From Sinohyriopsis cumingii (lineage: Eukaryota; Mollusca; Bivalvia; Unionida; Unionidae), in the NCBI GenBank assembly GCA_028554795.2, contig CM068839.1, positions 90,802,182-90,866,181 on the forward strand: a stretch of DNA of 64,000 bases, written 5' to 3'. The position numbers and the translations under genes are program-made. The notes under the pieces are model-generated. The model saw only the letters and a list, made by a program, of their open reading frames with translations. It was not told the origin of the DNA and made no database searches. Within the stretch, counting starts at the first letter, position 1. Each line of letters starts with the position of its first letter. Positions 40,567-57,145 of this stretch are shown in pieces.

Positions 40567-40863
40567 AGCAGCAGAGGGGGCGAACAGACCGAAACTATTT
40601 TCACAATAAACCCCTCCAGGAAACTATTCCTCGATAGAGGGCTTATTTCGACGAAATAAACCCTTCTATTCAGAATACAGGACAAAAAAAAATGTCCTTG
40701 AGAAATGCTTTGCATTTCCAGAAATGCTTTGTATTTCCGCTGATATAACGCGAGTTACTTCAATAAATCCGACTCGTATCCGACATAATTTCCACGGTGA
40801 GGTATCATCGAAAAATCAGGTGTAGTTTGCGCCCCCTCTGCTGCTCTACGAAATGAGTTTCCA
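40567..40863 (+). repeat. Left terminal inverted repeat, 297 bp
   Basis: It is the reverse complement of 56849-57145; base-by-base reading found no difference. It begins AGCAGCAGAGGGGGCG, and the reverse complement of these 16 bases recurs near its inner end (40830-40845), so the repeat is itself bounded by inverted repeats. It also holds hairpin-forming palindromes: GAAATGC-TTT-GCATTTC at 40702-40718, an imperfect second copy at 40721-40737, and GGGCTTATTTCG/CGAAATAAACCC near 40640. TIRs of this class carry the replication ends and integrase recognition sites. Confidence 0.95.
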
Positions 40864-40933
40864 AGTTGAGCGCGTTAACGCGCCAGGAAAAACATTTTTA
40901 TGTTAACGGAATTAAATCATTGATAAATAAATA

Positions 40934-42253
40934 ATGGCAAATATCGGAGAAGCACTCACAACTAGATTGGCACGACAACGACTAGCCGCGATTAAAAAAT
41001 TTATTCCTGTCCGTGATTCCGTCAGAGAAAAATTAAAGGCAAGACAAGAAGCGCAAGTTGAGTTTGCAACATCTGCGGAGGAATTATTTAAGCCTATTAC
41101 AGCAGCTACTGGTGAAGTTAAAACTGCAATTGTAGGAAAACCTGATCCTGCTGACCCTACCAAAACAAAACGAGGGTTACTTCAAGCAATAGAAGAACTT
41201 AAACAGCAACAGGCAGATGAAGGTGCTGTAGTTGATCCAGGTGCAGGAGCAGTGACAGTTGCCAAGGAAACATTTATTAATAAATTTACCGAAGATGGTA
41301 TTACTGATATAAAAAATATTCCACTTACTAGCGTGGATGAGCTTAGGGAGTTTTCTGCTTGGATTGTCTTAAATTATCCTAACCGGCAAGATTTTCTAAA
41401 ACCAGAAGCTGCTTCAGGTATGACCCTGAATGATTGGAGGGATTATGTTTACAAAGTAAACCGAGGTATTTCTCGAATATCTAGCACTGATGATACCTAT
41501 AATTTTATAAAAACTGGCGTAATTGGGGTTAATAAGGAACTAAGAGACCAACAAATGAAGGCAAAGGAAAGGGAAAGGCAGGCAAAAATACAGGAAATGG
41601 AAATGAAAAGGCAGGAAAGGGAGGAAGAAAAGAAGAAAAAAATGCAGGAAAAGGAAATGAAAAAACAGTTGAGACTACAGGAGAAGAAACCACCAGCTCT
41701 AAAAATAGACCCCGCAATAACACTGCCTGATCCAGTGCCTGAAATTTCATCACCTGAACAAATGGGGGCTAGCGCTCCTGATGATGATTTTACCACTCCT
41801 GTTTCGTCGCCCATCCCCCCCGATATATCAGAAGAGGAAATACTGAAAGAGCGAATAAAAGAATTAAAAAATGAATTAAAAAATTTAAAGGAGGAAAGAG
41901 AAAAATTACAAAAAGGAATACCGAAAAAGAGTACCCACTCTAAGATAGAAAAGATAGAAAAAAAGGAAAGATCTGTATTTGATGAAATTGTTAAAATATC
42001 AGCAAAACTAAAGAAAACAGGAAAAGGTTACACCGGTCGCGGATATAACAACCACATATGTCCTGATAATATCGTCAATGACGTATCACGGTTGGAAGTT
42101 CTCATCGGAGGAAGACGTGCCGGAAACAACTCTCCGGAAATTATAAATGAAGCCGCAGATATCTGTCAGAGACTATTTCAGCGTGGCATTATGGATATCG
42201 GCGTTTACCGGGGACTTATTGATGAACTCGCAGACGGTTACCACAGCGACTAG
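40934..42253 (+). CDS. Coiled-coil virion-associated protein candidate (unknown function)
   Basis: The 439-residue product opens the rightward structural block and is the first gene inside the left TIR. Residues 1-60 are basic and helical. Residues about 195-260 are an extremely K/E/R/Q-rich helix with M-K-x-Q-E-R-E-E periodicity. A Pro-rich linker (about 262-300) follows, then a second charged coiled coil (300-345). A compact C-terminal domain begins with GKGYTGRGYNNHICPDNI and contains RAGNNSPEIINEAADI. C-terminal segments with an AGN-x-S-x-E-I-x-N-E pattern are recalled from unnamed proteins of other Polintons at the same map position. No enzymatic motif is visible. The ATG follows AATAAATA. 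The function is unknown; a scaffolding or core role is a guess from the coiled coils and the neighbours. Confidence 0.85.
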   Translation: MANIGEALTTRLARQRLAAIKKFIPVRDSVREKLKARQEAQVEFATSAEELFKPITAATGEVKTAIVGKPDPADPTKTKRGLLQAIEELKQQQADEGAVVDPGAGAVTVAKETFINKFTEDGITDIKNIPLTSVDELREFSAWIVLNYPNRQDFLKPEAASGMTLNDWRDYVYKVNRGISRISSTDDTYNFIKTGVIGVNKELRDQQMKAKERERQAKIQEMEMKRQEREEEKKKKMQEKEMKKQLRLQEKKPPALKIDPAITLPDPVPEISSPEQMGASAPDDDFTTPVSSPIPPDISEEEILKERIKELKNELKNLKEEREKLQKGIPKKSTHSKIEKIEKKERSVFDEIVKISAKLKKTGKGYTGRGYNNHICPDNIVNDVSRLEVLIGGRRAGNNSPEIINEAADICQRLFQRGIMDIGVYRGLIDELADGYHSD

Positions 42254-42286
42254 CAAATTTAGTTAGAGAAACAATAATTAAATAAA

Positions 42287-42739
42287 ATGATCGTGCACAA
42301 TTCTCAACCCGGACACGCTCGTGTGTTACAAGTCCGCGTAGTAAACTCGCGATTACCAGTCTACAGAGCAACCTACGGAGATGGTCTCGGTGATACAATT
42401 ACTGGTTTGTTTTCAAGAATAGCCCCTAAGGCATTACCGATTGCAAAACAATTGTCGATGAAAGCTATTGATGTCATTAAGGATAAAGCCCTTGGATCTG
42501 TTGGTGATCTCGCCGGGAAAGCATTCGCGTCAATCAAGGACAGACTGTCACGGTTAACTCGTAGATTAAAAAAACCACCACCGGTGAAACTGGCCAGTAC
42601 TGAACTTATGCCCGCGGACGTCAGTAAAGTAATAAATCAGGCTGCCAATCAAAAACTTGCAGAGCTTGTAACCCAAACACCCGAACAAATAAATACAAGT
42701 CTGATATCAGGAAGCGGATTTCGTTTTAGAAGGCAATAA
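42287..42739 (+). CDS. Small basic virion protein candidate
   Basis: The 150-residue, strongly basic product has a conserved-looking start. It reads LPVYRATYGDGLGDTITGLF at residues about 24-43, then a run of amphipathic helix, ALPIAKQLSMKAIDVIKDKA. Next come a basic RLSRLTRRLKKPPP stretch and a C-terminus ending GSGFRFRR. A YG(D/H)GLG segment followed by a helix recurs in small Polinton proteins compared in the literature with adenovirus core or membrane-lytic proteins; this is recalled resemblance, not proof. It lies between the coiled-coil protein and the major capsid gene, 33 bp after the first and 11 bp before the second. ATG context is AATAAAATG. A DNA-condensing or membrane-active minor capsid role is inferred. 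Confidence 0.8.
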   Translation: MIVHNSQPGHARVLQVRVVNSRLPVYRATYGDGLGDTITGLFSRIAPKALPIAKQLSMKAIDVIKDKALGSVGDLAGKAFASIKDRLSRLTRRLKKPPPVKLASTELMPADVSKVINQAANQKLAELVTQTPEQINTSLISGSGFRFRRQ

Positions 42740-42750
42740 TTTTATATAAA

Positions 42751-44172: not shown

Positions 44173-44631
44173 ATGTCATACAGTCATGTTAATGTCACCT
44201 TGACTTCCGGTCAAACGAAGAAATTGCAATCGAAACACGCAAGCACGTGCGGGACATCAATAACGTTAAAACGAGATCAACTTGTTGGTGGTCCAAACAA
44301 GCTGTCGTTGACTAATACTCAGATTAAACATTTTAATAAGGCACTAACAGCAAAAACCGGTATCCGTCTTGATTTCTCTGCTGCAGCTATCAAGGACATG
44401 ACTAAAACCGGTGGAATATTTCCCCTCATCCCAATACTAGCTGCTGCAATTCCAGGATTACTCGGCGCAGCGGCAAAAGCTGCAGCGTTAGGTGCAGTTG
44501 GAACTGCAGCTGGAATGGCACTAAAAAAGGCAACGGGAAAAGGATACAAGAAAAAAAAGGGGAGATCCACTCGCGGATCAGGTCTAAGACTACCAGGAAC
44601 TCCACCATCATGGTATCCAAAAAAATTCTAA
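44173..44631 (+). CDS. Hydrophobic-basic minor virion protein candidate (pVI/pX-like)
   Basis: The 152-residue product has three parts: a polar N-terminal half with KLQSKH...SLTNTQIKHFNKAL, a glycine/alanine-rich hydrophobic helix (TGGIFPLIPILAAAIPGLLG and the following AAAKAAALGAVGTAAGMAL, residues about 84-118), and a very basic tail (KKATGKGYKKKKGR). The TGG-F/I-x-P-L-I/L membrane-active pattern after a (S/L)-T-x-x-Q-I-K segment is recalled from small Polinton proteins. Those are often likened to adenovirus pVI or pX, which are processed by the viral protease. Its last 22 bases overlap the start of the protease gene, fitting coupled expression. Membrane disruption during entry is an inference. 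Confidence 0.8.
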   Translation: MSYSHVNVTLTSGQTKKLQSKHASTCGTSITLKRDQLVGGPNKLSLTNTQIKHFNKALTAKTGIRLDFSAAAIKDMTKTGGIFPLIPILAAAIPGLLGAAAKAAALGAVGTAAGMALKKATGKGYKKKKGRSTRGSGLRLPGTPPSWYPKKF

Positions 44632-45074
44632 CGCCGTTGAGCAATTTTGATTTACTCGATGCTGTTAAAAAATTGCGTGTAAAACATTTCAGAGGCGTAT
44701 TTATGCGAGATCAATTACCGACGCGGCCGAATAATCCAGAAACTGGCATTATCAATCTCGACAACAAAGATGGTCCGGGAACTCACTGGGTTGCTTACGC
44801 GATCGATCCACGTGGAATTATCTATTTTGATTCGTACGGTTTAGCACCGCCAGTTGAGTTTCTCAAGTATGTCCGCGGAGTGCCTCGCACTCTCAACAGC
44901 AGATTTTCTAATGTTCCAGTGTGGCAGTCGACGTTACCAACACAAACATTAATTGATCCGCCCATTTGTGGGAACGAGGTTTTAAATGTTCTTGATGCAA
45001 TCTCAAGAAATCCAGCAACGTCTCCGCATCGAGTAGTGTATGAATATACCGCATCGAGAAATGCTAGCATTTGA
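44610..45074 (+). CDS. Adenovirus-like cysteine maturation protease (C5/Ulp1 fold)
   Basis: The 154-residue product has the catalytic elements in the adenain order. These are GTHWVAY with His59, YFDSYG with Asp74 (the third triad residue), a Gln at about 106 (VWQST) that could form the oxyanion hole, and Cys120 in PICGNEVLNVL. The upstream GIINLDNKDGPGTHW is the usual lead-in. Length is typical for Polinton proteases and shorter than adenovirus adenain. It would process capsid or core precursors during maturation. The start ATG at 44610 lies inside the preceding gene. The stop falls in the palindrome AAATGCTAGCATTT (45059-45072), one of a recurrent family in this element. Confidence 0.92.
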   Translation: MVSKKILTPLSNFDLLDAVKKLRVKHFRGVFMRDQLPTRPNNPETGIINLDNKDGPGTHWVAYAIDPRGIIYFDSYGLAPPVEFLKYVRGVPRTLNSRFSNVPVWQSTLPTQTLIDPPICGNEVLNVLDAISRNPATSPHRVVYEYTASRNASI

Positions 45075-45092: not shown

Positions 45093-46358
45093 ATGGTGGA
45101 TATTTACGGAAGACCTTTCACACGAGGAGGTAAACCAAGCACAGATGCTGATCTCTCAAAATATGCGACCCGAGATGAAGTCGATAATCTTTTGAATATA
45201 GCTGGAGTTGACCCAGATGAAGTTGCTATTTTCCAAGACAAGCAAGGAAAACTAAGAACGAGCAACATTAAGTGGAATGATATAATTCGCAGAGTTCTTG
45301 GAGCTACCAAGGATAATTTCGTTGCATTTAGTGATGGCGGCCGGATCAAGGACTCGAATATATCAATCGCAAGCATCAAAGACAGTATTGATAAAGGTGT
45401 TGATAAATGTGTGAAAAAAGCCGGTGACACGATGACAGGCGAACTCAGCATGAATGGAAACAAAATAACCGTACTCAGAGATCCAGCCTCGAACGACGAT
45501 GCAGCAAACAAACAATACGTCGACGCGCAGTACAAACTCGTTGTTGACCTAGTCAGCGACAAAGTAACAAAATCCGGCGACGTAATGACCGGCGGACTTG
45601 ACATGAGCGGCAACAAAATAACCGCGTTAGCAAATCCCGAATCCGACCAGGATGCGTCAAACAAACAATACGTGGACATCGTCAACGGTAAACTAAATAC
45701 GCTGCGTGCAGAGTATGATGTTCACGTGGGCGCGTTTACAAGACTTCGAAGAAACTTCTCAAAAACTGATGAGGCCGTGGATAAGTTCTTTGGGGATCCT
45801 CCAGTCGTCGACACGAAACTTTCTGAAATCATACCAAATCTTACTAATAACGCCAACGATATCAATAAGATTAATACCCGGTTAGGTGTAGTCAGAACGG
45901 AAAAAAGTTTTTCAGATCAAGTTCAGATAATAGAAAATAACATTAACACGATCAAACAAACACAGCAGAATATAGTATCGGGTATTCCTGAGATCGTTAA
46001 CAAAACCAGTCTGATTAAAGTTCCCACTGGAGTTACTCCCGGGCATATCACCAACATCGTATTCACGGTATCATCGGGATTCGCAACATGGTCACGACAA
46101 AATAGCACTATCAAATATACAGCAACAGCCACCGGTGTTTACAGGTTGTCTGTGTTTTCAGCCGCTAAATTTGAAATCTTCACAACATATCCTTGGAGAC
46201 ATTCCACCGATAAGTATTCCGGGGTTTGCACTGTAATACTAAACAGCGGAACCGAGGAAACATTTATGCTTGAAGCCGCCGACGATACTTTAACAGCAAC
46301 ATCTTACTGGTTTTGTTTGGAATTCGTCGCTGCAACGCCTCAATTGGTTACCGCGTAA
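45093..46358 (+). CDS. Fibre-like attachment protein with phage tail-fibre repeats
   Basis: The 421-residue product contains two copies of a roughly 40-residue module: KAGDTMTGELSMNGNKI...AANKQYVD (about 108-144) and KSGDVMTGGLDMSGNKI...ASNKQYVD (about 158-194). The pattern GDxMTGxLxMxGNKIxxLxxP....DAxxKxYVD is a classic element of phage tail and receptor-binding fibres. Before it is an N-terminal segment that could anchor in the capsid (PSTDADLSKYATRDEVDNLL). After it come a coiled-coil-like stretch (about 215-295) and a beta-rich C-terminal domain of about 110 residues with TGVYRLSVFSAAKF, resembling a C1q/TNF or fibre-knob fold. A trimeric attachment spike is the best guess. The head fold is inferred, not recognised by a signature. 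Confidence 0.85.
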   Translation: MVDIYGRPFTRGGKPSTDADLSKYATRDEVDNLLNIAGVDPDEVAIFQDKQGKLRTSNIKWNDIIRRVLGATKDNFVAFSDGGRIKDSNISIASIKDSIDKGVDKCVKKAGDTMTGELSMNGNKITVLRDPASNDDAANKQYVDAQYKLVVDLVSDKVTKSGDVMTGGLDMSGNKITALANPESDQDASNKQYVDIVNGKLNTLRAEYDVHVGAFTRLRRNFSKTDEAVDKFFGDPPVVDTKLSEIIPNLTNNANDINKINTRLGVVRTEKSFSDQVQIIENNINTIKQTQQNIVSGIPEIVNKTSLIKVPTGVTPGHITNIVFTVSSGFATWSRQNSTIKYTATATGVYRLSVFSAAKFEIFTTYPWRHSTDKYSGVCTVILNSGTEETFMLEAADDTLTATSYWFCLEFVAATPQLVTA

Positions 46359-46386: not shown

Positions 46387-46992
46387 ATGTCAACGTTGAA
46401 ATCCGAAGGATTTCCAGATGCTCAACAATATCGATATAATCAAGTCCGTGAGTGGCAATCTGAGTTAAAAACTGTCATCGAAGTAACCAGTCAAAAAGTA
46501 AAAAAATACCGCAGACGCATAACAGTGTTAGACGTTATGGTTTATTCAGTATCCGCCGTTGTTGCATCCGCGGAAGTAATACTATCAGCGGTCACTCCGG
46601 TGACTGCAGTAGTCGCTGCCACGATTTCTGTTTCCGCTGCTACAGCAACAGCAGGAGTTTTCGGCATCATAGCAAAAAAAATATCCTCGTGTGCTAACAC
46701 AAAATTACACGATTACACGACAAAATTAAATACAGCCACGACCGCATACCAGAAATTATCATCGCTGATATCATCATCGTTAGACGTGCAATCCAGCGAC
46801 GCTACGTCGATATCAGATTCTGAATTCAAACTAATGTCAGATGTGTACAATGACTATTTGAAAACTAAACAAATAAATAATGTCACTGATGGCAACGCCA
46901 CAGGAACTGCTTCAGCAAATAGTTACAAACACAACCCCGGTAAAAACAACAATGATTTCAGTGTCGTCGACGAAACCAGAATTCAGTATTAA
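46387..46992 (+). CDS. Two-helix membrane protein of Polinton type
   Basis: The 201-residue product has a polar, basic N-terminus (to about 45), two adjacent hydrophobic Ala/Val/Ser-rich segments (about 48-68 and 70-97: VMVYSVSAVVASAEVILSAV and TAVVAATISVSAATATAGVF), a KK turn, and a Ser/Thr-rich helical region with SDSEFKLMSDVYNDYLK near 150-165. The same plan occurs in the decayed gene at 23985-24657. I recall similar proteins encoded near the capsid genes of many Polintons. A role in the internal membrane, entry or egress is inferred from the hydrophobic pair. Its last 113 bases overlap the following capsid gene in another frame. Confidence 0.8.
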   Translation: MSTLKSEGFPDAQQYRYNQVREWQSELKTVIEVTSQKVKKYRRRITVLDVMVYSVSAVVASAEVILSAVTPVTAVVAATISVSAATATAGVFGIIAKKISSCANTKLHDYTTKLNTATTAYQKLSSLISSSLDVQSSDATSISDSEFKLMSDVYNDYLKTKQINNVTDGNATGTASANSYKHNPGKNNNDFSVVDETRIQY

Positions 46993-48313
46993 TTTTCGAA
47001 CTCCTATTACCGTAAATGAAATCGCGTTGGCGAAGCTCAGTGTGTATCACAGCTGGCCCAATGTCAGAGTGGAATCATTTTCCGGTCAACAGCCGAATAA
47101 TTCGTTTGTGTTCTCGTGGAAAAGCAAAGTCGACTCTGACAAATTCGACTGGGATACAATTGCGCTACCCACTGGAAGTTATCAGATCGAAGAAATCAAC
47201 GCGGAGATACAACGCCAAATAAAACGAATCACCGGCAAGGAAGCCAAAATATCTGTGACCGCGCACGAACCAACGCTGTCTGCGGTCATTGAAATCTCAA
47301 CACCGGGATACGCCGTGGATATTTATAGCAGCTCAATCCGAACAGTATTAGGATGGCCACGAGAACGACCCGAGGTTGAACCGGGTCCACCGCCACCATC
47401 GAAGTCGGATTTCGAGACCACGAAGGAAGAACTACACGACCTCGTGTACGGTGAGCATTTATTATTTCCAGATCAATTACGATCAGACCAAGCCCGGTTT
47501 TCAACATCAGATAGACTCCCCTTGGATATAATAGGGGTAGGTTTCGAAGACGGGAGATTCCGGAATTACCAGCCAGAAGACATAGAAGCTCATTTTTTTA
47601 ATCCGATCAAACAAGCACATAAACAACAGCTAGACCTGTTGGGGGGACATTTCCAAGATTATATCTCTGATATAACAAAACCACGCACGAACATTATCAC
47701 CACCATAGAAAAACTAAACAAACTCGCATCCACGATGGAATTTATAAATCAAAAAGTAATTCAACATCTACTGGATCTCAAAGGCGATTATGGAACCCAA
47801 AAAAGATCGAATTTTGCAGCCCGATTTGGTATTCCCGTGAAGGATATTTCAGATTTTAAACTTCCTGGATATAACGTACACACACTGAGAAAATCAGTCT
47901 CTGATCTTATCGCGGAATCTTTCGAAGATATTCTTACCGCGTACACGAAAATAAAACCACAACCTGTTATTTTAAGACACGATAACAGTACAGCATCCGA
48001 TGGCAGACACATCTCACCCGGGATCGTAAATATCACAGATGTTATTGCGGTCAATCTTGTATGTGACGTCATCGACGGTAGCTACAGCGCTAGCGCTGAC
48101 ACAACGACGGCCCAACAGGGGTTTATCCTGTATACGTTCACACCAAAAGACCCCCCTGGTTTTCTGATTGTGCAAGAACCAATCAATGTGGTCTATCTGC
48201 GGTGTAATAATCCGTGGTTGTCAACGATAAATTTTAAACTCACCGACCAACGGGGGGGGTTGTTGGACCTGCGTGGCGAGACTGTCTCCGTGAACTTACT
48301 GGTGAAGTCCTGA
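46880..48313 (+). CDS. Penton-like minor capsid protein
   Basis: The 477-residue product starts with a beta-rich domain containing SINFRTPITVNEIALAKLSV and the segment LPTGSYQIEEINAEIQRQI (residues about 94-112), followed by VLGWPRE near 157. Its C-terminal part has CDVIDGSYSAS, LYTFTPKDPPGFLIVQEP and finally TDQRGGLLDLRGETVSVNLL. This (L/V)-x-DxxGxLxDxRGExxxxxL ending is the signature I associate with Polinton/adintovirus minor capsid (penton) proteins. A long helical insert lies between (about 170-350). It would occupy the vertices next to the fibre encoded at 45093. The start ATG follows AAATAAATA and lies inside the upstream gene. The stop TGA begins a hairpin (48312-48328) that may act in 3'-end formation. 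Confidence 0.85.
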   Translation: MSLMATPQELLQQIVTNTTPVKTTMISVSSTKPEFSINFRTPITVNEIALAKLSVYHSWPNVRVESFSGQQPNNSFVFSWKSKVDSDKFDWDTIALPTGSYQIEEINAEIQRQIKRITGKEAKISVTAHEPTLSAVIEISTPGYAVDIYSSSIRTVLGWPRERPEVEPGPPPPSKSDFETTKEELHDLVYGEHLLFPDQLRSDQARFSTSDRLPLDIIGVGFEDGRFRNYQPEDIEAHFFNPIKQAHKQQLDLLGGHFQDYISDITKPRTNIITTIEKLNKLASTMEFINQKVIQHLLDLKGDYGTQKRSNFAARFGIPVKDISDFKLPGYNVHTLRKSVSDLIAESFEDILTAYTKIKPQPVILRHDNSTASDGRHISPGIVNITDVIAVNLVCDVIDGSYSASADTTTAQQGFILYTFTPKDPPGFLIVQEPINVVYLRCNNPWLSTINFKLTDQRGGLLDLRGETVSVNLLVKS

Positions 48314-48335
48314 AACTCTTCGAGTTTCCACGCTC
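48312..48335 (+). terminator. Hairpin GAAACTC-TTC-GAGTTTC after the penton gene
   Basis: A perfect 7-bp stem with a 3-base loop begins at the stop codon of the penton gene and is followed by CACGCTC. The same unit recurs at 48655-48678 and, inverted, at 49244-49267. The position at gene ends suggests transcript termination or 3' processing; function is inferred. Confidence 0.45.
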
Positions 48336-48364
48336 ACGCATTTAAAAAAAAACAGTTGTATATA

Positions 48365-48640
48365 ATGTGTGAATACATTCACGCACGAGTTCATATTCAT
48401 GATAAGCAAATTCTTCACGAGGCAATAAAAACCGCATTTGGAAACTCACACGAACAGTATTTCCCCGTTAAAATAATCGTTGACGTGTACGGCGACGAAG
48501 ACTTCTTGTTAACGTCGTCACAATTAACACAGCTACAGCAAAATCATATGATCACAGCTTGGTGTCAACGAGAACAGATTATGAACTATTCTCATTGTTG
48601 TATTGATGTTGAAACGCTTAAGCAAATCCTGGAAGTCTAA
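48365..48640 (+). CDS. Small protein of unknown function
   Basis: A 91-residue frame whose likely ATG at 48365 directly follows TTGTATATA, the same AT-only context as the other genes of the element. A TTG nine bases earlier is not needed as a start. The sequence mixes charged and hydrophobic residues, with ILHEAIKTAFG and VKIIVDVYGDED, and has no recognised motif. It is flanked by hairpins at 48312-48328 upstream and at 48632-48669 downstream. The first of the downstream pair overlaps its stop codon. It may be an accessory gene cassette. Coding status rests on context and composition. Confidence 0.55.
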   Translation: MCEYIHARVHIHDKQILHEAIKTAFGNSHEQYFPVKIIVDVYGDEDFLLTSSQLTQLQQNHMITAWCQREQIMNYSHCCIDVETLKQILEV

Positions 48641-48794: not shown

Positions 48795-49211
48795 TTATAC
48801 TTCCTTGTCGGCCTCGTAGTCACAAATACTAGTATTTTCGTCAGAAATGCAAGGCATTTCCGTGTCTAGATTCTTTATATAACCTTTTAACCGTCTCACC
48901 CTGGTGCTAATTAATTTTCGAGTCTCATACTCGCTTGACAATACAAGACGAATCTTCTCAACTGCACGGCACAGTGGAATAAATTCAGATACCTGATTTT
49001 CAGTTATCCCGGCAAGTGATCTGTAAATGCGATCTTGCAAACCCTTAATGAACCTATAACACGCGGGGAGATTGTTCTTCCCCGATTGTGATAGCTCATT
49101 CAAGGATTCAAAATCTGACATAATTGTTTCAGTGTCTAGTAAAATATTAAAACCTCGCTGTTGTAATTCTTTAATTTCAACAAGTATGGTATTTATATTT
49201 TCGTGATTCAT
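48795..49211 (-). CDS. Helical protein of unknown function
   Basis: I take the ATG at 49211, giving 138 residues, because it is preceded by ATATATAATAAT, the typical context of this element; the longer frame would start inside a hairpin. The product is mostly helical and charged: NTILVEIKELQQRGFNILLD, LQDRIYRSLAGITENQVSEF, and RKLISTRVRRLKGYIKNLD near the C-terminus. No motif was recognised. The gene is flanked on both sides by the same pair of hairpins in inverted orientation (48632-48678 and 49244-49288). An internal palindrome GAAATGC-AAG-GCATTTC (48844-48860) lies within the coding sequence. Confidence 0.6.
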   Translation of the reverse strand: MNHENINTILVEIKELQQRGFNILLDTETIMSDFESLNELSQSGKNNLPACYRFIKGLQDRIYRSLAGITENQVSEFIPLCRAVEKIRLVLSSEYETRKLISTRVRRLKGYIKNLDTEMPCISDENTSICDYEADKEV

Positions 49212-49243
49212 ATTATTATATATTTTTATATTTTTAAATGCAT

Positions 49244-49300
49244 GAGCGTGGAAACTCGAAGAGTTTCTCTGGAAGTCCAAGGGACTTCTCATGCTAGCAT
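49244..49300 (-). repeat. Inverted copy of the double hairpin, plus ATGCTAGCAT
   Basis: GAAACTC-GAA-GAGTTTC (49251-49267), GAAGTCC-AAG-GGACTTC (49272-49288) and ATGCTAGCAT (49291-49300) stand in a row. Read on the minus strand, the first two and the adjoining CACGCTC reproduce the unit at 48632-48678. Confidence 0.8.
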
Positions 49301-50186: not shown

Positions 50187-50759
50187 TTACACACTCGTGG
50201 AGGAGTTATCGTCGTTTGTGTCAACGATAAGAGGTACATAACTAAATGTGATCTTCTGTTTGAGCTTCTTTGAAAATGCTGTTTTGTGGATCCCATCTGC
50301 GACATGCTGTACAGCAGGTGGACAAATACCGAAATACCTACTGGCGGCGTTTATTGACTGGAATACAATTTCTTCACCTGCGTTTATAGATTTAATAGCT
50401 CTTCTTGCAACTGTTTTACAACGCCCTGTGTTACCCAGTAGGCAGTTCTTGCTCTGAGTGACCACGCGAAGATTGTTTATAGAGTTATCAAGTATGTTAC
50501 CGTTAATGTGATCAATGACAAAACCCTTAGGGATCACTCCGTTAAAAACCTCATAGACGAAACGATGACATAAATACCTCTTTGAGCACGTGGCAGTAAA
50601 TCTTAAATAACCAGCATTATCAACTGTACCAACTGGTCGTCTTCGCGTGCAGTGTCGCACCGTGCCATCTCGGTTTGCCTCATAATTTGGAATAGTTGGA
50701 TGTGCAACAAATTCTTGTTCGGGAACAAATTCTTGTTCGGGGACGAATTCTTGATTCAT
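50187..50759 (-). CDS. HNH homing-type endonuclease (NUMOD4-HNH-like)
   Basis: The 190-residue product begins with a short tandem repeat, EFVPEQ about 2.5 times, and then reads IPNYEANRDGTVRHC (NUMOD4-like). Next comes GYLRFTA...LCHRFVYEVFNG, then IPKGFVIDHINGNILDNSI with the DH of the HNH motif, and NNLRVVTQSKN. These are the H-x-L-V...DHIDGN...NLR(x)(V/C) series of phage and giant-virus homing endonucleases. A C-terminal FQSINAASRYFGICPPAVQH resembles the NUMOD1 DNA-binding helix. No intron or intein was seen in the element, so it is a free-standing endonuclease gene. It is a possible selfish passenger or a domesticated function. The neighbouring polymerase fusion also ends in an HNH domain, of a different type. 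Confidence 0.88.
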   Translation of the reverse strand: MNQEFVPEQEFVPEQEFVAHPTIPNYEANRDGTVRHCTRRRPVGTVDNAGYLRFTATCSKRYLCHRFVYEVFNGVIPKGFVIDHINGNILDNSINNLRVVTQSKNCLLGNTGRCKTVARRAIKSINAGEEIVFQSINAASRYFGICPPAVQHVADGIHKTAFSKKLKQKITFSYVPLIVDTNDDNSSTSV

Positions 50760-50787: not shown

Positions 50788-51069
50788 TCATAATTTGTCT
50801 GAAAACTTATTTATGTAATCACGCTCCGAGAACGTGTTCGAGTCTGGATTTTTTTTATCATAATACCGTTTTAGTTCTCGATAGCGTTTCCCCCCACACG
50901 CTGAACATAATTGCGTTTTTCCTCGTACTCCAATGCCGCATCTGATACACGGTATCGGTCCTAGACTCCCACCGCGGACCTGTTGAGCATGTTGTCCACA
51001 GTATTCGTGTCTGCATGGTTTGCTACACGGCGCTGATGAATTTAGTTTAATCCACTTGCATTGGTGCAT
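50788..51069 (-). CDS. Small zinc-ribbon protein
   Basis: The 93-residue product has an N-terminal cluster, C15-x3-C19-x-H21-x2-C24-x2-H27, then a zinc ribbon C41-x2-C44...C55-x2-C58 (PCIRCGIGVRGKTQLCSACG), and a basic helix RYRELKRYYDKK. Cys-rich proteins of this kind occur in large DNA viruses as putative transcription or DNA-binding factors; no specific family was identified. It is divergently oriented to the polymerase fusion, separated by only 42 bp of AT-rich DNA that must hold both promoters. The ATG is preceded by AAATATATTAT. Confidence 0.7.
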   Translation of the reverse strand: MHQCKWIKLNSSAPCSKPCRHEYCGQHAQQVRGGSLGPIPCIRCGIGVRGKTQLCSACGGKRYRELKRYYDKKNPDSNTFSERDYINKFSDKL

Positions 51070-51111: not shown

Positions 51112-54100
51112 ATGAGTTTTGAAAGACTATCCAGAATAAAACCTGGAAATCTCCAATTTCCCCGAGGTCGATTCGATCTTGACCGGTTAACTTTTGATCG
51201 ACGACGACGAGAACTCACACTCGTAATTGGTGTTATCAAGAACGCCAAAGAAGAGTTTCGTCGTGATGGTGCCGCACATGTGTGGTCTTCGTATAAAATC
51301 ATTTCTGAAAATGCCATCATTGATGGTACCATCAACGATACAATCGCGTCGAACATAATTGGGTATCTCGATGATAAAAAATATTTCATTCAGATAAAAT
51401 TTATCGTTGGCGTCGACGACACGGAAACAGGTGAAACAACGTGGATTATCAGAGACAAACTAGACCCTATTCTTGATGCCCGGCGGGGGAAAACCGTCGT
51501 CGTAACCAAAGACTCAAACCCGGGAGTACTTGTTGGGATTGATATACCATATTATGCCAGAGCGTATCCTGTGACCGCAGTCATTTATGGAATTTATCCG
51601 ATGAAGAAACCACGCGTTGATAAACTCGCCCCGATGAAGATGTCAGAGTCATTGATAAAATCCACAGGGTTGAATTGTGTAGCCGAGCGAGTAATGGAAC
51701 ATTTTAAAAATGCAATGCGAGGAAACGGCCTAACACCGCTAAGACAGACTAAAATAGCAGCGTGGGCGGCAAAAGTAGTGGATGAAGGAGCGTCAATAAA
51801 TGATGTTGCCGAGCTCGAACGATTACTAAAATTTCCTATAACGGTTTCATCGTTGACCGGTGAGGTATTGTACAAGAGTAAATATGATTCCCGTGGAGCA
51901 CCAATAACTATTATCGATCATAACAGTCACGCCTGGACTGACTCGGTTAGGATATTTCCTCGAGATCGTGTTGTAAAGTATTATCCGGAATTGGAAAATG
52001 CTAGTGGTTCCACGAGCGGAAATGCCAGCATTTCTATGTTTGATTTTATTTATCAGATAAGTAAAACCGATCCAGTGTCGGTGTGGTTATTCCGAAGTGA
52101 CCTCGAGGGAGAGTTTGATCAGTTTGTGAAACCCAACGGGGAGGTATACAGAACGGCGGCATTACATCACGAAATGAAAAAACTCGCAGAAAAATATCAT
52201 GCGACGAACACTGATACGTTACTGACGCAGTGTTTTACTGTCCCGGGTGTTGTCACGCATATAGCCCGAGAACGAAATTCATGGAGACCAACCCCGAAGA
52301 GCTTTCTCGAGGATATTCAACAGAGCTGTATCGAATACGGGCACGGTGGTTTGTGGAATACCCAGTATGATCACCGCGATATGATATCCGTGGATATGAC
52401 GGCGTGTTATCCAGGAAGTTTTCTTGGGCGGGGAGAATGTAGTGAGTATTTTAAACGGTTTGGTCATATTACAAGCTCGATGACAAGAGTTGCCATAAAC
52501 GGACCATTGCCTGATTTTGACCTGACCGGGGTTGCTTGTGTGTCGTCGTTTAAACTCGCTACGGGTTTACATCCTGTGTGTTATGCTTGGTTTGGTAAAC
52601 ATTTCGTTGAGAAGCGATGGGCACCAATAGTGTTATTGCGATACATGCTTGACAGTCAAATACTGCTGTCGCTGACGGTCAGTGAAGCGATTATATGCTA
52701 CTGTCGTCAAACCGAAGTTTGGTTGCCAACTCCGCAAGTCATCGAAGAAACTAATAATTTCCAGGAGTATCCAGAATCTTTTATCGACACTATCATCGAA
52801 AGAACTCCTAAAATTTCCCAAACTGATGAAAGCGCCGCAAAAGATCTAGGACGAAGAATAATAGGAAAATTTACTCAAGGTGGAGCGTATGATCATAAAC
52901 TACATCATAGTCGATTAATCATGGACGAGGCCGAATTGGATCTTATTGTCGCTGATGCCGCCACGAATAATACGTTTTGTACCCGCGAAGATGTGTTTCT
53001 GTCAAACGGGGAAAAATTAGGAACTGTTTTTAGTTATATCGACGGAGAATCATCTCAGTACACACATTTGAGATCTTCGATGCTCGCTCATGTATCAATA
53101 AACCTATTGTCGATGATTAATAGGTTTCCCGTTGACGCAGTGAGAGTTGCAACGGATTCATTCTATATCGATAAAAAACACTTAGCGGCGTTGAATAAGG
53201 TTATACCGAATGATCCATCGTGGGGTTCATGGAGAATAAAAAATGAAATGTTGCATGGATATTGTGAATCAGCTGATGTTGAAATCGAGGATGAATATCG
53301 CGGCGCAGAAATATCTGGGAAATTTTCAATTTCTACGACAACTTCGCTGCCGCCGGTGCACGATCCTGTTGTGAGACATAGAACAGTTTATCTCAACGGG
53401 GCTGGTGGTTCCGGTAAGACAACTCGCGCGATAGAATTATTTAGAAACTCTGACATGATTGTGCTAACACCCACACATAGACTTGCCAGGGAGATGAGAC
53501 AACGGGATGTTAACGCGTGCACGTATCACAGTTTTTTCAAATACAGCGGCGGCACATGGACTCCTACGCGAATGGGAACGAAATATATCCCTGGAATAAT
53601 CATCTGGGATGAGATAGACACTGTCCCGTTGGATACATTAAAACAGTTTCTGGATTGGTTGCTAAAGAAAAATACCGCAGTTGTTATGTGCGGCGATCAT
53701 GGTCAACCACCGCCATTTACAGGTGAATCTCCACACACGTGGCTGAAAACTTTTGTAGATTATTATGAGGAAATAACTAACGATGTTAGAGCACTCGATG
53801 AAACGCTGAAAGAGTTTAAGGCGTTGATCAGGCTACAAACCAATAAAGTCCAGTGTGAGATAATGCGTGAAATAATTCCAGAGACTTCGCTGAGCGACTT
53901 TTGGGAAACGTGGAAACCAGGTGATTTAATTGTGGCAAGTAGAAAGATAGTCAGGGACACACTTCAGCAGCGGTTATTTCAGTTACATCAGAAGAAATTT
54001 CCCATGTTGCCAGTGCCGTTGTGTTATAGACCAGCTGATACGCGATTGCAGAATACCGACGTTGATATACCTGGGAGATCGGAAAAACAGAATTTAGTAT

Positions 54101-54642
54101 TAAATGATATTGTCACAGTTGATATTGATGCTGTTGAACAGGCACTGAAAATGAGCAAATCCCCGTGGACGCTAGGATACGCTATGACCATCCACAGTTC
54201 GCAGGGACTAACTATTTCAGATACAACAGTTTGGATTGTTGATGATCGCATCGAGTGGTCAAATTTAGTTTATTTAGCCGTGTCAAGAGTAAGAAGGATA
54301 GGTCAGTTACGAAGAATTGTATTAGATGATGTTATCAACGACAGCATCAACAGATCAATCGCTGATGATACAATAAGAAAGAAATTAGCCGGTTACAAAC
54401 AGAGCGACAAAAAAAATGGCAACGAGTTTGATCTCGACGAAACATTTATTATACAATTACAACAACAGCAGAATAATCACTGCGCGAGTTGTAATTGTTT
54501 ATTGCTGTGGCAGTATTCGAAAAATAATCCAAGGCAATTTACCGTAGATAGAATAGATAGTAATCGCGGTCATACGCGTGAAAATGTGATGTTGACCTGT
54601 CTTGAGTGTAATCGACGCAGAGGTGCTGCTGCAGTTATTTAA
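51112..54642 (+). CDS. Replication fusion protein: PolB-like palm, SF1 helicase, C-terminal HNH
   Basis: The 1176-residue frame has no stop. A roughly 400-residue N-terminal region is unrecognised. A family-B polymerase palm follows: motif A SVDMTACYPGSF with Asp428 and Tyr433, a motif-B-like IIGKFTQGGAY (about 583-593), and motif C VRVATDSFY with Thr681-Asp682-Ser683. No convincing 3'-5' exonuclease or terminal-protein-primed insertions were seen. A superfamily 1 helicase follows: Walker A GAGGSGKTT (763-771), Walker B IIWDE (Asp833-Glu834), motif III CGDHGQ (Gln865), motif V TIHSSQG (1026-1032) and motif VI LAVSR (to 1059). The last 60 residues form an HNH/zinc domain: C1124-x2-C1127, DRID, H1154, N1158, C1163-x2-C1166. 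I recall anonymous PolB-palm proteins with the KFTQG motif from cnidarian and fungal genomes, but not as a Polinton hallmark. It presumably combines unwinding and synthesis. Confidence 0.88.
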   Translation: MSFERLSRIKPGNLQFPRGRFDLDRLTFDRRRRELTLVIGVIKNAKEEFRRDGAAHVWSSYKIISENAIIDGTINDTIASNIIGYLDDKKYFIQIKFIVGVDDTETGETTWIIRDKLDPILDARRGKTVVVTKDSNPGVLVGIDIPYYARAYPVTAVIYGIYPMKKPRVDKLAPMKMSESLIKSTGLNCVAERVMEHFKNAMRGNGLTPLRQTKIAAWAAKVVDEGASINDVAELERLLKFPITVSSLTGEVLYKSKYDSRGAPITIIDHNSHAWTDSVRIFPRDRVVKYYPELENASGSTSGNASISMFDFIYQISKTDPVSVWLFRSDLEGEFDQFVKPNGEVYRTAALHHEMKKLAEKYHATNTDTLLTQCFTVPGVVTHIARERNSWRPTPKSFLEDIQQSCIEYGHGGLWNTQYDHRDMISVDMTACYPGSFLGRGECSEYFKRFGHITSSMTRVAINGPLPDFDLTGVACVSSFKLATGLHPVCYAWFGKHFVEKRWAPIVLLRYMLDSQILLSLTVSEAIICYCRQTEVWLPTPQVIEETNNFQEYPESFIDTIIERTPKISQTDESAAKDLGRRIIGKFTQGGAYDHKLHHSRLIMDEAELDLIVADAATNNTFCTREDVFLSNGEKLGTVFSYIDGESSQYTHLRSSMLAHVSINLLSMINRFPVDAVRVATDSFYIDKKHLAALNKVIPNDPSWGSWRIKNEMLHGYCESADVEIEDEYRGAEISGKFSISTTTSLPPVHDPVVRHRTVYLNGAGGSGKTTRAIELFRNSDMIVLTPTHRLAREMRQRDVNACTYHSFFKYSGGTWTPTRMGTKYIPGIIIWDEIDTVPLDTLKQFLDWLLKKNTAVVMCGDHGQPPPFTGESPHTWLKTFVDYYEEITNDVRALDETLKEFKALIRLQTNKVQCEIMREIIPETSLSDFWETWKPGDLIVASRKIVRDTLQQRLFQLHQKKFPMLPVPLCYRPADTRLQNTDVDIPGRSEKQNLVLNDIVTVDIDAVEQALKMSKSPWTLGYAMTIHSSQGLTISDTTVWIVDDRIEWSNLVYLAVSRVRRIGQLRRIVLDDVINDSINRSIADDTIRKKLAGYKQSDKKNGNEFDLDETFIIQLQQQQNNHCASCNCLLLWQYSKNNPRQFTVDRIDSNRGHTRENVMLTCLECNRRRGAAAVI
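52019..52034 (+). repeat. Palindrome GAAATGC-CA-GCATTTC inside the polymerase gene
   Basis: A perfect 7-bp stem with a 2-base spacer lies within the coding sequence near residue 305. It belongs to the same recurrent palindrome family as copies in the TIRs, at 45059 and at 48844. Confidence 0.85.
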
Positions 54643-55606
54643 GTGATCGAGGTGGTAATTGTGTATCCGCGGGGATCACCTGAAGTTGCTCGCGTGTGAA
54701 CCCACGCTGAGGAGCAGTTGAATCTAATCTGTAGATTGCGTTTCTCCCAGTTGATCTGGTTATGCTAGATATCTTATGTGTTGTAACGCTCCATATAGGA
54801 TCAGTTGCCCTTTTTTTTCCTCCTTCGAGTTCGCCGGGTTCGTATAAATACCTAACGGTGACATTACCCAGTAGTGGGGACGCTAGCGTCGTTGGCTGCG
54901 TTGAAACACGTTCACTGACGCGGGGTATATATTATTTTGTGATTGCATTTACAGGTCTCATGTTTGTTGTTCTGGTAATTTCATTATTCAGTGCGGCTAT
55001 CACGTTTGGCAGTCTTGCAACCCATTCACGAGATCTCGTATCGTAAATGAATTCCCTCGCGTACTGGTATCCGAATAATCTCTCAGCGAGTGTTCTATTA
55101 AATCGCTCAACAATTGCCTGATCCCGATGAATTTCAGTATGTCCTCGTCGTATGGTAACGTTATGCTGCTTTGTCAGTGATGACACCGCGCCCTGAAATT
55201 CTTTACCAGGATCAACTTGTAATAATCGTGGCCAGTTTAGAGGTCCTCGTTGATAAATTCGTTTAAACGCAGAGGCGACTTCGGACGCTGTTTTAGTCGC
55301 TAACGGTTCTGCTTCTTTGTATCTACTAGCAACATCAACTACTGTTAGCGCGTATTTGTATGTTTTTCTACGGACAGTATCATGAGGCAGGAATAGTATG
55401 TCAGCCTGATGAACTTCATTGGGGGTACTAACATCAAAATGTGCAAAGTTGATTTGTCGAGGTGGTGGTAAGTAGATTTGCCATATTGCTTGTTTTGACA
55501 GCCATTTTTTGGCAACCTCGCGTGTTACTGATGCCGCGTTGGCGAGTTTATTAATTGCTGAGTTACCTCTCCAGTATCCGGCCGGGGAATAATAAATCGC
55601 TTCCAT
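54635..55606 (-). pseudogene. Retroviral-type integrase, interrupted by one in-frame stop
   Basis: The intact 5' part (55606-54932, 224 residues) has the Polinton-specific N-terminus (YYSPAGYWRG...VAKKWLSKQAIWQIYLPPPR). It carries the catalytic D,D-35-E core: Asp69 in VHQADILFLP, Asp132 in LQVDPGKEF, Glu167 in AIVERFNRTL. A TAA at 54932-54934 ends it. In the same frame, sequence down to 54635 encodes what I recognise as the family's C-terminal domain (YLYEPGELEGGKKR, DPIW, RGFTREQLQV), so the stop splits one gene. The alternatives are a recent nonsense mutation, readthrough, or a naturally truncated integrase. Its end overlaps the convergent polymerase gene by 8 bp. It starts 9 bp after the phospholipase gene. 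Confidence 0.9.
54879..54890. repeat. Palindrome GACGCTAGCGTC
   Basis: A perfect 12-bp palindrome centred on GCTAGC, between the integrase stop and its C-terminal remnant. Related GCTAGC-centred palindromes occur at 45059-45072, 48085-48098 and 49291-49300. Confidence 0.85.
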
Positions 55607-55615
55607 TGTTATTAA

Positions 55616-56124
55616 TTATCCAGCGCCTAATGCTAATTTAGATTTCATCGCTGATCTTATTAACCAATTAGCGAGTGACTCCTTAAATGATTTATTTTTT
55701 ATGGCGCTTAGTGCATGAATTAATTTCACATCCGCGATATGCCTGTCTTGCAGATCTTTACTTCGATAAGCAACATCATGCATGTGACACGCTGCGTCGA
55801 TAGCGTTTATCGGATACTCTCCCGGTTTTGGTTTAGACTGTTCATCAAGTCTGATATCTAGTCGTGTCCCTGGACCGCAGTAATTGTATCCTGGGAGATG
55901 TTTTTCTCCGGGATATTTAGCCCAAGGGGTACCTGGAAGTCGTCCGAGGGTTGCTGCGATGTCACCTCCGCTGACTTTGTCAGGCTTTTTTTTTGAAATC
56001 TAAATTTTTTTGTGCCACATCGCGCACACTTACCAGAAAGTGCTTGTCTGTTATTTTTTGTTGTAATGGTTGTTAGATCATTCGTAGGGGTTTGTGCCTT
56101 ACACTTCACACAATATAGATCCAT
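55616..56124 (-). CDS. DUF5679 zinc ribbon fused to phospholipase-A2-like domain, via a frame change
   Basis: The first frame (ATG at 56124) gives MDLYCVKCKAQTP...CARCGTKKFRF, a DUF5679-type zinc ribbon with C5-x2-C8 and C33-x2-C36. At a run of nine A (plus-strand T at 55986-55994) the coding continues in the -1 frame. There I read GGDIAATLGRLPG, the calcium-loop motif YCGPGT, the catalytic-helix motif DAACHMHDVAY (His-Asp pair near 55775-55780) and a C-terminal WLIRSAMKSKLALGAG, ending at 55616. Fusion of the zinc ribbon to a parvovirus-like PLA2 domain is familiar from Polintons and adintoviruses, where PLA2 may aid membrane escape. The zero frame also runs on for about 35 unrelated residues to 55858. 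The A run is in phase as a slippery site (A AAA AAA). Confidence 0.82.
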
Positions 56125-56146
56125 AATTATTATTCCTTATATACAA
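56125..56146. promoter_or_regulatory. Divergent AT-rich promoter region
   Basis: Twenty-two bases separate the leftward DUF5679/PLA2 gene from the rightward ATPase gene. They read AATTATTATTCC and TTATATACAA on the plus strand, so both genes have AT-only sequence directly before the ATG. Confidence 0.45.
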
Positions 56147-56818
56147 ATGGAGATCACTGATTTTTCTGCGACGCGAAGGAAAGAACCAGTCAAGCATAAT
56201 TCCGCGCTACCAAATTCTATCAGAATGATCATCATAGGACCGTCAGGATCAGGTAAAACGCAACTGCTACTGAACATGATAATGAAGTGGATGAAATGGG
56301 ACAAACTATACTTGATAGCTCCGTCTGTGGATGATCAACGTTGTTATGATGTTATAAAAGATTTTAATGAGAGTGCAAAAGCGCTGAGTGAAGACGGCGA
56401 GGATGTTGTTGAATTTATAACTGATATTGAAGAAGCTCCGTCCGTGGAAGACCTCGACGGGGAAATAAATAACCTAGTAGTGTATGATGATGTGATGCTG
56501 GACAAGCAAAAAAATCCTGCAAGAATATTTTCACGAGGTCGTCATAAAAACACTGATGTGATTTATGTTACTCAGCGTTATACACAAATTCCAAAAGTAA
56601 TCAGGGATAACTGTAATCTTCTTGCGGTGTTTAATGGAGTTGATGTTCACACGCTGAGAAATATTCATCAAACCTGGTGTAGCGGCGATATGGATATTAA
56701 TAAGTTTAAGAATTTCTTTAGTCGCGCTCAAAGAAACCAGCACGGATTTGTGACAATAAATTTACACGACCCGCGGACACGATACCGCGTCGGCCTTGAT
56801 ACACTATTTGCGACATAA
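56147..56818 (+). CDS. Genome-packaging ATPase (FtsK/HerA, A32-like)
   Basis: I choose the ATG at 56147, giving 223 residues, because TATATACAA precedes it and MEITDF is followed by a coherent domain. The longer frame from 56012 runs across the divergent gene start. Motifs: Walker A GPSGSGKT (residues 31-38), Walker B LVVYDD (Asp114-Asp115), and the FtsK/A32-type segment IYVTQRYTQIPKVIRDNCN containing the sensor Gln. The C-terminus reads FVTINLHDP. These patterns define the Polinton/NCLDV packaging ATPases that pump DNA into the capsid. The length is typical. It is the last gene before the right TIR, and a hairpin follows its stop. Confidence 0.93.
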   Translation: MEITDFSATRRKEPVKHNSALPNSIRMIIIGPSGSGKTQLLLNMIMKWMKWDKLYLIAPSVDDQRCYDVIKDFNESAKALSEDGEDVVEFITDIEEAPSVEDLDGEINNLVVYDDVMLDKQKNPARIFSRGRHKNTDVIYVTQRYTQIPKVIRDNCNLLAVFNGVDVHTLRNIHQTWCSGDMDINKFKNFFSRAQRNQHGFVTINLHDPRTRYRVGLDTLFAT

Positions 56819-56831
56819 AAATGTTTTCTTA

Positions 56832-56846
56832 GGAATCGAAGATTCC
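56832..56846 (+). terminator. Hairpin GGAATC-GAA-GATTCC after the ATPase gene
   Basis: A perfect 6-bp stem with a GAA loop starts 13 bases after the ATPase stop and abuts the right TIR. It resembles the GAAACTC-GAA-GAGTTTC hairpins in loop and position. A role in termination or 3' processing is inferred. Confidence 0.45.
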
Positions 56847-56848
56847 CA

Positions 56849-57145
56849 TGGAAACTCATTTCGTAGAGCAGCAGAGGGGGCGCAAACTACACCTGATTTT
56901 TCGATGATACCTCACCGTGGAAATTATGTCGGATACGAGTCGGATTTATTGAAGTAACTCGCGTTATATCAGCGGAAATACAAAGCATTTCTGGAAATGC
57001 AAAGCATTTCTCAAGGACATTTTTTTTTGTCCTGTATTCTGAATAGAAGGGTTTATTTCGTCGAAATAAGCCCTCTATCGAGGAATAGTTTCCTGGAGGG
57101 GTTTATTGTGAAAATAGTTTCGGTCTGTTCGCCCCCTCTGCTGCT
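56849..57145 (-). repeat. Right terminal inverted repeat, 297 bp
   Basis: Exact-looking reverse complement of 40567-40863, including a run of nine T matching nine A. It ends CGCCCCCTCTGCTGCT. The inner 16-bp inverted copy of the terminus begins at 56867. Confidence 0.95.

What the first reader, a model, noticed from the sequence alone, without database searches (positions are those of the whole stretch)
40567..57145. Nearly intact Polinton/adintovirus-like virus with apparently identical TIRs
Seen: 297-bp TIRs with no visible mismatch, AG...CT ends, flanking AATGC, about 15 genes with almost no debris. Known: integrase, FtsK-type ATPase, C5-like protease and double-jelly-roll capsid define the Polinton/adintovirus group. 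Inference: recent integration, perhaps a provirus able to make virions if the two interrupted genes are rescued. The replication module is atypical, so this may be an undescribed lineage.
Basis: partly seen in the sequence, partly recalled or inferred. Interest (0 to 1): 0.9.

Follow-up and report, generated by a model that had tools for sequence, protein, structure and literature searches.

The report
Integrated virus swarm swapping its coats
One genome, likely a freshwater mussel's, carries at least 39 full-length copies of an integrated DNA virus that share an almost identical replication gene but, in most copies compared, have quite different shell genes, which likely means that a virus population inserted itself recently while trading shells.

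Summary
In detail: a 16,579-bp element with 297/297 identical terminal repeats and a 5-bp target duplication. It encodes a double-jelly-roll capsid, rve integrase, A32-type ATPase, fibre, parvovirus-type PLA2 and a 1,176-aa replicase ending in SF1 helicase and HNH, which fits the Tlr1-like fusions of polinton-like viruses, not an adintovirus polymerase.

It is not alone. At least 145 host loci match its replicase, capsid or repeat (capped lists). All 39 scored replicase hits are full-length, open and 98-100% identical. Their elements are 16.1-16.9 kb; 38 of 39 have exact 5-bp duplications; left and right repeats differ at 5 of 8,170 compared bases, though in 19 copies the match ends within 131 bases. 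Yet 13 of 14 sampled capsid genes are below 88% identical to the window's; one locus shows the reverse. Best reading: recent integrations from a recombining virus population.

The integrase stop is private to this copy (open in 7 of 7 others read); the PLA2 frame break is shared by its sister copies. Host name, virions and activity are untested.

The parts
40562..40566 (.). left target-site duplication AATGC
   Evidence: matches 57146-57150; exact 5-bp duplication in 38 of 39 elements of the family
40567..40863 (+). left terminal inverted repeat, 297 bp, with the 16-bp end motif repeated inverted at 40830-40845
40934..42253 (+). 439-aa protein of unknown role, rich in charged helical-looking stretches; only 35% or less of the compared piece is alignable in 12 of 38 other copies
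42287..42739 (+). small unknown protein, 150 aa
42751..44145 (+). [quoted passage not shown] the exchanged module
   Evidence: PF21738 5.2e-14; relatives in freshwater mussels; 7 types in 15 copies; 91 scored full-length loci in the host
44173..44631 (+). small Gly/Lys-rich protein with a hydrophobic stretch, unknown
44610..45074 (+). putative adenovirus-type cysteine protease (weak)
   Evidence: PF00770 E 0.0069, below cut-off
45093..46358 (+). fibre-like protein with phage tail-fibre similarity
   Evidence: PF03906 1.9e-7; PHROG tail fibre 3e-12
46387..46992 (+). unknown protein, 201 aa, overlaps the next gene
46880..48313 (+). putative minor capsid (penton-like) protein; role inferred
   Evidence: 14 relatives, none named by function, several in freshwater mussels; model too weak to judge (pLDDT 53)
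48365..48640 (+). unknown 91-aa protein
   Evidence: present in the two other copies read there
48795..49292 (-). unknown 165-aa protein
   Evidence: similar frame in the two other copies read there
50187..50759 (-). HNH_3 homing-endonuclease-like protein
   Evidence: PF13392 2.5e-16
50788..51069 (-). small Cys-rich protein, possible zinc ribbon (not significant)
51112..54642 (+). 1,176-aa Tlr1-like replicase: N-terminal region with conserved Cys189/His270, polymerase-like motifs, SF1 (Pif1/Dda-like) helicase, C-terminal HNH
   Evidence: 39 of 39 scored host loci full-length and open
54690..55606 (-). rve integrase; in-frame stop at 54932-54934 in this copy
   Evidence: PF00665 4e-9; frame seen; open in 7 of 7 other copies read
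55619..55999 (-). parvovirus-type phospholipase A2 domain, no ATG before its core, own frame
   Evidence: PF08398 3.6e-14
55858..56124 (-). DUF5679 zinc-ribbon ORF running into the PLA2 coding region in another frame
   Evidence: PF18930 8.5e-15
56066..56818 (+). A32-type packaging ATPase
   Evidence: PF04665 1.6e-13
56849..57145 (-). right terminal inverted repeat
57146..57150 (.). right target-site duplication AATGC

Best explanation
This is one of at least 39 full-length, 16-17 kb copies of an integrated polinton-like virus in one genome that share a 98-100% identical replicase but, in 13 of 14 sampled, carry a clearly different capsid gene, and they likely come from a virus population that recombined its coat genes and then integrated recently. 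Shown: the copies, their sizes, their open replicase frames, the 5-bp target duplications, nearly mismatch-free left/right repeats within copies (over 93-416 bp in 37 of 39) but different repeats between copies, and capsid/replicase mismatch in both directions. Inferred from the families: the Tlr1-like protein would act as protein-primed polymerase plus helicase on a linear genome; the AGC-repeat ends would let it jump back at initiation and keep the two ends alike; progeny would be packaged by the A32 ATPase into double-jelly-roll capsids bearing fibres; a PLA2, perhaps made by frameshift or slippage at an A-run, would breach membranes on entry; the rve integrase would insert the linear DNA with a 5-bp stagger. 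Coat exchange would occur by homologous recombination between co-replicating genomes. Untested: virions, expression, host name, whether this copy (integrase stopped) can still move in trans.
For: 39 of 39 scored replicase hits full-length, open, 98-100% aa (capped list). 38 other elements 16,096-16,916 bp. 38 of 39 exact 5-bp duplications, 37 distinct sequences among 38. Within-copy TIR difference 5 of 8,170 compared bases; between-copy mean 8.1% over the first 93 bases in 37 copies; 19 versions of those first bases in 39 copies. Replicase DNA 98.3-99.0% in the 7 other copies read; capsid DNA 72.6-87.6% in 13 and 99.6% in 1 of 14 further copies, whose replicase is 98-99% by protein; 7 capsid clusters at 90% aa in 15 copies. 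Reverse case: of three loci with 98% identical capsid, two have replicase stretches 99% and one 76% identical in DNA. In one copy close DNA lies on both sides of a 72.6% capsid (row 10). pN/pS 0.138 replicase, 0.276 capsid. 89 of 91 scored capsid hits without a stop. At least 145 loci.
Against: No transcript, particle or free genome was seen; five scans of viral contigs found no relative. The replicase list is ranked by likeness to the query, so its uniformity is partly chosen. Replicase DNA and capsid DNA were read in different copies (7 and 14), so their link in the 14 rests on protein identity. The three reverse-case pieces are tied to their capsids by distance only, their ends unread. TIR comparison is ungapped and ends at the first cluster of differences, which understates divergence; in 19 of 39 copies the match ends within 131 bases, in two within 13 and 24, so the ends are not always kept equal. 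Recombination among chromosomal copies is not excluded. The polymerase palm has no database hit and was modelled poorly.
Confidence: 0.7

Rival explanations
1. A self-synthesising transposon that spreads inside the germ line without particles; capsid genes ride along and are shuffled by recombination between extrachromosomal or chromosomal copies.
For: At least 145 loci in one genome; no relative in the viral contig collection; no particle evidence.
Against: 89 of 91 scored capsid hits are without a stop and amino-acid changes are held down (pN/pS 0.276 over 8 copies); fibre, protease-like and PLA2 genes are kept in this copy. Capsid relatives occur on short contigs from sources marked jgi and ena, though these may be host DNA.
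Confidence: 0.25
2. Gene conversion among integrated copies homogenised the replicase after integration, leaving old, different capsids.
For: Same DNA pattern of a uniform gene beside a variable one; ends that match for only part of their length in 19 of 39 copies.
Against: It would have to act on dozens of loci on many chromosomes, spare the capsid, and still leave nearly every copy with its own matching repeat start and a clean 5-bp duplication.
Confidence: 0.13
3. An ordinary adintovirus/Maverick provirus, as first read.
For: Capsid, integrase, ATPase, protease-like gene, TIRs.
Against: Replicase is a helicase-HNH fusion with no polymerase B family among the Pfam matches of 30 members; target duplication is 5 bp, not 6.
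Confidence: 0.06
4. Assembly artefact: haplotigs or collapsed repeats make the copies look numerous and equal.
For: Two of the 39 replicase hits lie on small contigs (C96, C82).
Against: 37 distinct target duplications in 38 and different flanks, most on contigs of 72-193 Mb; the 8 copies compared differ from each other by up to 2.8% over replicase plus 1.5 kb on each side, one pair being identical.
Confidence: 0.03

Closest known systems
Tlr1 element of Tetrahymena and Tlr1-like pPolB-S1H polinton-like viruses (PMC11071308, section 10 and passages; PMC4642659 and PMC3671162, passages)
   Same: Large fusion with a conserved Cys/His region upstream, polymerase-like motifs with a single Asp in motif C, C-terminal SF1 helicase and HNH/GIY-YIG nuclease; rve integrase; capsid and packaging ATPase.
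   Different: Probable animal host; HNH instead of the GIY-YIG of Tlr1; PLA2; replicase 36-47% identical to most of the relatives found (P0005-P0036).
Vertebrate Mavericks (PMC8097293, passages)
   Same: About 16.9 kb mean size, TIR mean 402 bp, AG-starting end repeats, intact copies, purifying selection on capsid genes.
   Different: 6-bp target duplications and a protein-primed PolB there; 5 bp and a helicase fusion here; at most 38 intact copies in one genome there.
Cryptophyte polinton-like viruses (PMC12220804, section 11 and passages)
   Same: Large expansions in one genome, fibre proteins like those of phages, MCP and polymerase trees disagree, TSDs of about 4-6 bp reported for PLVs.
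   Different: Protist hosts; exchange inferred there from trees, here seen between copies with 98-99% identical replicase.
Adintoviruses (PMC11071296, passages; original paper not held)
   Same: Animal-associated, adenovirus-like virion genes, rve integrase.
   Different: [quoted passage not shown] the replicase here is another kind.
OmPLV of Oxyrrhis (PMC12721341, abstract and passages)
   Same: Helicase SF1-pPolB fusion in an endogenised PLV.
   Different: Helicase at the N-terminus, exonuclease present, no rve integrase found there.

Membership tests
[quoted passage not shown]
   PF21738 5.2e-14
Polinton/Maverick-type integrating virus (broad) | rve integrase | tested here: met
   PF00665 4e-9, above cut-off; stopped in this copy, open in 7 of 7 others read
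Polinton/Maverick-type integrating virus (broad) | A32/FtsK-type packaging ATPase | tested here: met
   PF04665 1.6e-13
Polinton/Maverick-type integrating virus (broad) | adenovirus-type (C5/Ulp1) protease | tested here: inconclusive
   PF00770 E 0.0069, below cut-off
[quoted passage not shown]
   candidate 46880-48313, model pLDDT 53
Polinton/Maverick-type integrating virus (broad) | long terminal inverted repeats | tested here: met
   297/297; matches at both ends in 38 of 38 other copies, left-right match of 93 bp or more in 36 of these 38
Canonical Maverick / adintovirus | 6-bp target-site duplication (Mavericks) | tested here: not met
   5 bp in 38 of 39 elements
Canonical Maverick / adintovirus | protein-primed PolB recognisable as DNA_pol_B_2 | tested here: not met
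   no polymerase B family among the 23 families matched by 30 replicase relatives at E up to 1; a missing hit is not proof of absence
Canonical Maverick / adintovirus | integrase with C-terminal chromodomain (adintovirus) | tested here: inconclusive
   no significant Pfam hit in the 80-aa C-terminal piece
Canonical Maverick / adintovirus | hexon recognisable by BLASTp against adintoviruses | not tested
   no named adintovirus sequence was available in the calls
Tlr1-like polinton-like virus | C-terminal SF1 helicase in a large fusion | tested here: met
   [not shown]
Tlr1-like polinton-like virus | C-terminal HNH or GIY-YIG nuclease | tested here: met
   phrog_3322 endonuclease 3.6e-11 at 1089-1173; Pfam HNH only weak, in 13 of 30 members, best E 0.023
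Tlr1-like polinton-like virus | vOTU with conserved Cys and His | tested here: inconclusive
   Cys189 and His270 nearly invariant in 30 rows; no domain hit, assignment made by eye after the description in PMC11071308
Tlr1-like polinton-like virus | protein-primed PolB palm | tested here: inconclusive
   DMTACYPGS-like and RVATDS-like stretches conserved, read by eye; palm region poorly modelled

The most novel reading that the evidence does not exclude
The genome is a recent snapshot of a still-circulating animal virus: a single replication gene has swept through many old capsid lineages, so that dozens of near-identical replicons wear serotype-like, freely exchanged coats, and its entry PLA2 is made by slippage at an A-run. 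That would make coat swapping by a Tlr1-type polinton-like virus of molluscs observable as it happens.
Probability: 0.4. Interest if true: 0.9.

Novelty: new variant of a known kind. Interest (0 to 1): 0.78.

Why it matters
Whether Polinton-type elements of animals are live viruses is hard to test because known copies are mostly decayed (PMC8097293, passages). Here one genome, probably an animal's, holds dozens of full-length, freshly inserted copies with open replicase frames, so activity can be looked for directly in living hosts. The copies also show module exchange at a fine scale: nearly the same replicase with capsids that differ by up to 27% in DNA. That ties the modular evolution inferred from trees to events recent enough to catch, and it extends the Tlr1-like replication module, described from protists and transpovirons in the papers seen, to animals (sea slug, and probably mussel).

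Tried and rejected
Adintovirus label: dropped (membership test). 'Second broken gene': dropped as a lesion private to this copy. In one search, 24 loci were examined and 18 scored: 10 at -1, 7 at +1, 1 in the same frame but with a stop between. Five were not scored (DUF motif missing or cut off; three of them young copies) and L004 was dropped because its motif match was spurious. Against the idea of a conserved break: in L097 the second half of DUF5679 reads in frame with PLA2 and the break lies further upstream, and L099 also slips earlier, so some old copies may just be decayed; the young copies are near-identical and count as one lineage. Since both directions occur, a strict -1 programmed frameshift does not explain all; slippage, a short intron or a non-ATG start stay open. 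RNA downstream of the A-run folds better than shuffles (z -2.98), one sequence only.

Viral-contig scans with replicase, capsid, ATPase, integrase and minor capsid found nothing; a genome-contig scan found one 3.2-kb contig. Minor-capsid model too weak to search. The palm domain was not reached in the fold comparison; that absence says nothing. A search for canonical PolB in the host, empty-site searches with host flanks and host naming by a mussel protein did not complete. Literature: 10 searches; no title or abstract start listed there is about Tlr1-like elements in molluscs, one search listed nothing relevant, two bivalve transposon papers were not opened, many subscription papers are not held. 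PMC12220804 (section 11) itself mentions pPolB exchange involving molluscs.
Full report
What is there. The element spans 40567-57145 (16,579 bp). Its terminal repeats are identical over 297 of 297 bases and no further. It begins AGCAGCAG and is flanked by AATGC on both sides. The 16-base end motif also stands inverted inside each repeat. Genes found: capsid (PF21738), weak C5-like protease, tail-fibre-like protein, HNH, SF1-helicase-HNH replicase, rve integrase, DUF5679, PLA2 (PF08398) and A32-type ATPase. The element is CpG-rich against its surroundings (1.18 against 0.78 observed/expected), as expected of young DNA in a genome that loses CpG; coding content may contribute.

Not alone. The window lies in a 2.905-Gb genome of 1,138 contigs. 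I fetched both ends of the 38 others. The repeat was matched at both ends in 38 of 38. Element sizes are 16,096-16,916 bp. With the window, 38 of 39 show an exact 5-bp duplication, one of these in a TA repeat and so ambiguous; one shows none. The duplications are 37 different sequences of 38, so these are independent insertions. Scored hits with the capsid (91, of which 2 contain a stop) and with the repeat (40) raise the count to at least 145 loci that match one of the three probes; 19 of these are known by the repeat alone. A search with the ATPase family listed 150 hits, also capped.

Age. Left and right repeats within copies differ at 5 of 8,170 compared bases, K = 6e-4. With substitution rates of 1-5 per billion years (recalled, not from a call) this is about 0.06-0.3 million years on average. 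The comparison is ungapped and stops at the first cluster of differences, so it understates divergence: the match ends at 124-131 bases in 16 copies, at 93 in one and at 13 and 24 in two, and in many of these one end resembles the window's repeat further than the other. Those ends may be recombinant. Between copies the first 93 bases differ by 8.1% on average in 37 copies, with 19 versions. Since this greatly exceeds within-copy divergence, most differences between copies probably arose before integration, with the outer ends equalised during replication.

Mosaics. In the 7 copies whose replicase region was read, replicase DNA is 98.3-99.0% identical to the window's. I fetched the capsid piece of 14 of the other 31 copies, picked by list position without knowing the capsid; their replicase is known as 98-99% identical protein, not as DNA. 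One capsid is 99.6% identical, 13 lie between 72.6 and 87.6% over 83-100% of the gene. With the window's, the 15 capsids form 7 clusters at 90% amino-acid identity. All 14 have open stretches of 413-486 codons; five begin at the edge of the piece, so their starts were not seen. The first gene is alignable over 71-100% of the compared piece in 26 of 38 copies and over 35% or less in 12. In one copy with a 72.6% capsid, the first gene (96.8% over 84%) and the end of the minor-capsid gene (94.3%) are close to the window's, so the capsid sits as a divergent island. The reverse also exists: of three loci with a 98% identical capsid, two have a 99% and one a 76% identical replicase stretch; these pieces are tied to their capsids by a distance of about 10 kb only. 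Published work reports disagreement of capsid and polymerase trees in cryptophyte PLVs (PMC12220804, section 11); the new point is its recency and scale within one genome.

Selection. Pooled, uncorrected pN/pS is 0.138 for the replicase in 8 copies (copies ranked by protein likeness, so biased down) and 0.276 for the capsid in 8 copies (synonymous sites near saturation in many pairs, so biased up). Both point to kept function, including virion function, in the source population. Vertebrate Mavericks show the same sign more strongly (PMC8097293, passages).

Broken or not. The integrase is stopped in the window (54932-54934) but open for 326-339 codons in 7 of 7 other copies read: intact copies exist. 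PLA2 has its own open frame of 127 codons and a 9-A run in 8 of 8 young copies, is offset by -1 from DUF5679 in the 5 of these that could be scored, and has no ATG before its core there. Older lineages are mixed: -1, +1, one same-frame, and one (L097) in which the second half of DUF5679 is in frame with PLA2. For the young family the offset is inherited rather than a fresh lesion of this copy; frameshift, slippage, splicing or a non-ATG start are predicted and untested. Because the older lineages are mixed I lowered the novel case from 0.45 to 0.4, and because of the partly unequal ends the best explanation from 0.72 to 0.7.

Host. Capsid and minor-capsid relatives are annotated from Sinanodonta woodiana and Potamilus streckersoni, freshwater mussels, and a replicase relative sits in a bin named for a bacterium (Candidatus Thiodiazotropha) that I recall as a clam symbiont. 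Contigs C1-C19 are 72-193 Mb, which fits a mussel karyotype of 19 (recalled); C20 was not seen.

Mechanism. Shown: insertion with a 5-bp stagger, matching outer ends, intact modules, module exchange. Inferred: protein-primed replication with jump-back on AGC repeats (by analogy with adenovirus, recalled), packaging, entry by PLA2, coat exchange in co-infected cells. Overall: a new variant of a known kind, with unusual evidence of recent activity.

Noticed in passing
6069-6857, minus strand: Decayed fragment of a related replicase (best E 7.7e-11, 36% to P0005); the significant hits are to relatives outside the window's own set, not to the window's replicase: a fossil of another lineage in the same window.
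   Followed up: partly
25572-25856, minus strand: Open stretch whose N-terminus looks by eye like the start of Elysia-type replicases (LRDEFEA...); not significant.
   Followed up: no
48312-48362, 48655-48694, 49217-49267: Short palindromes (GAAACTC/GAGTTTC type) repeated between genes, possibly transcript ends or recombination joints.
   Followed up: partly
49300-49590: Gene-poor stretch with inverted AT-rich arms (CAAAAATAAACAGATAGATG / CATCTATCTGTTTATTTTTG), perhaps a small nested element; the stretch to 49521 is also present in another copy (L117).
   Followed up: no
1919-2123, 37770-37917, 40312-40498: A similar 46-bp satellite unit, in either orientation, occurs in three places of the window, one ending 68 bp before the insertion.
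   Followed up: no
C15:35864377 and C18:12658687 (L014, L015): Two copies on different large contigs are identical over the 6,543 bp read, the closest pair of the 8 compared.
   Followed up: partly
C4:4253759 and C4:4259935: Two capsid genes with equal scores and lengths 6 kb apart in opposite orientation: a tail-to-tail or nested arrangement.
   Followed up: no
L001: A replicase relative on a 3.2-kb contig binned as a Diapherotrites archaeon, probably mis-binned eukaryotic or viral DNA.
   Followed up: no
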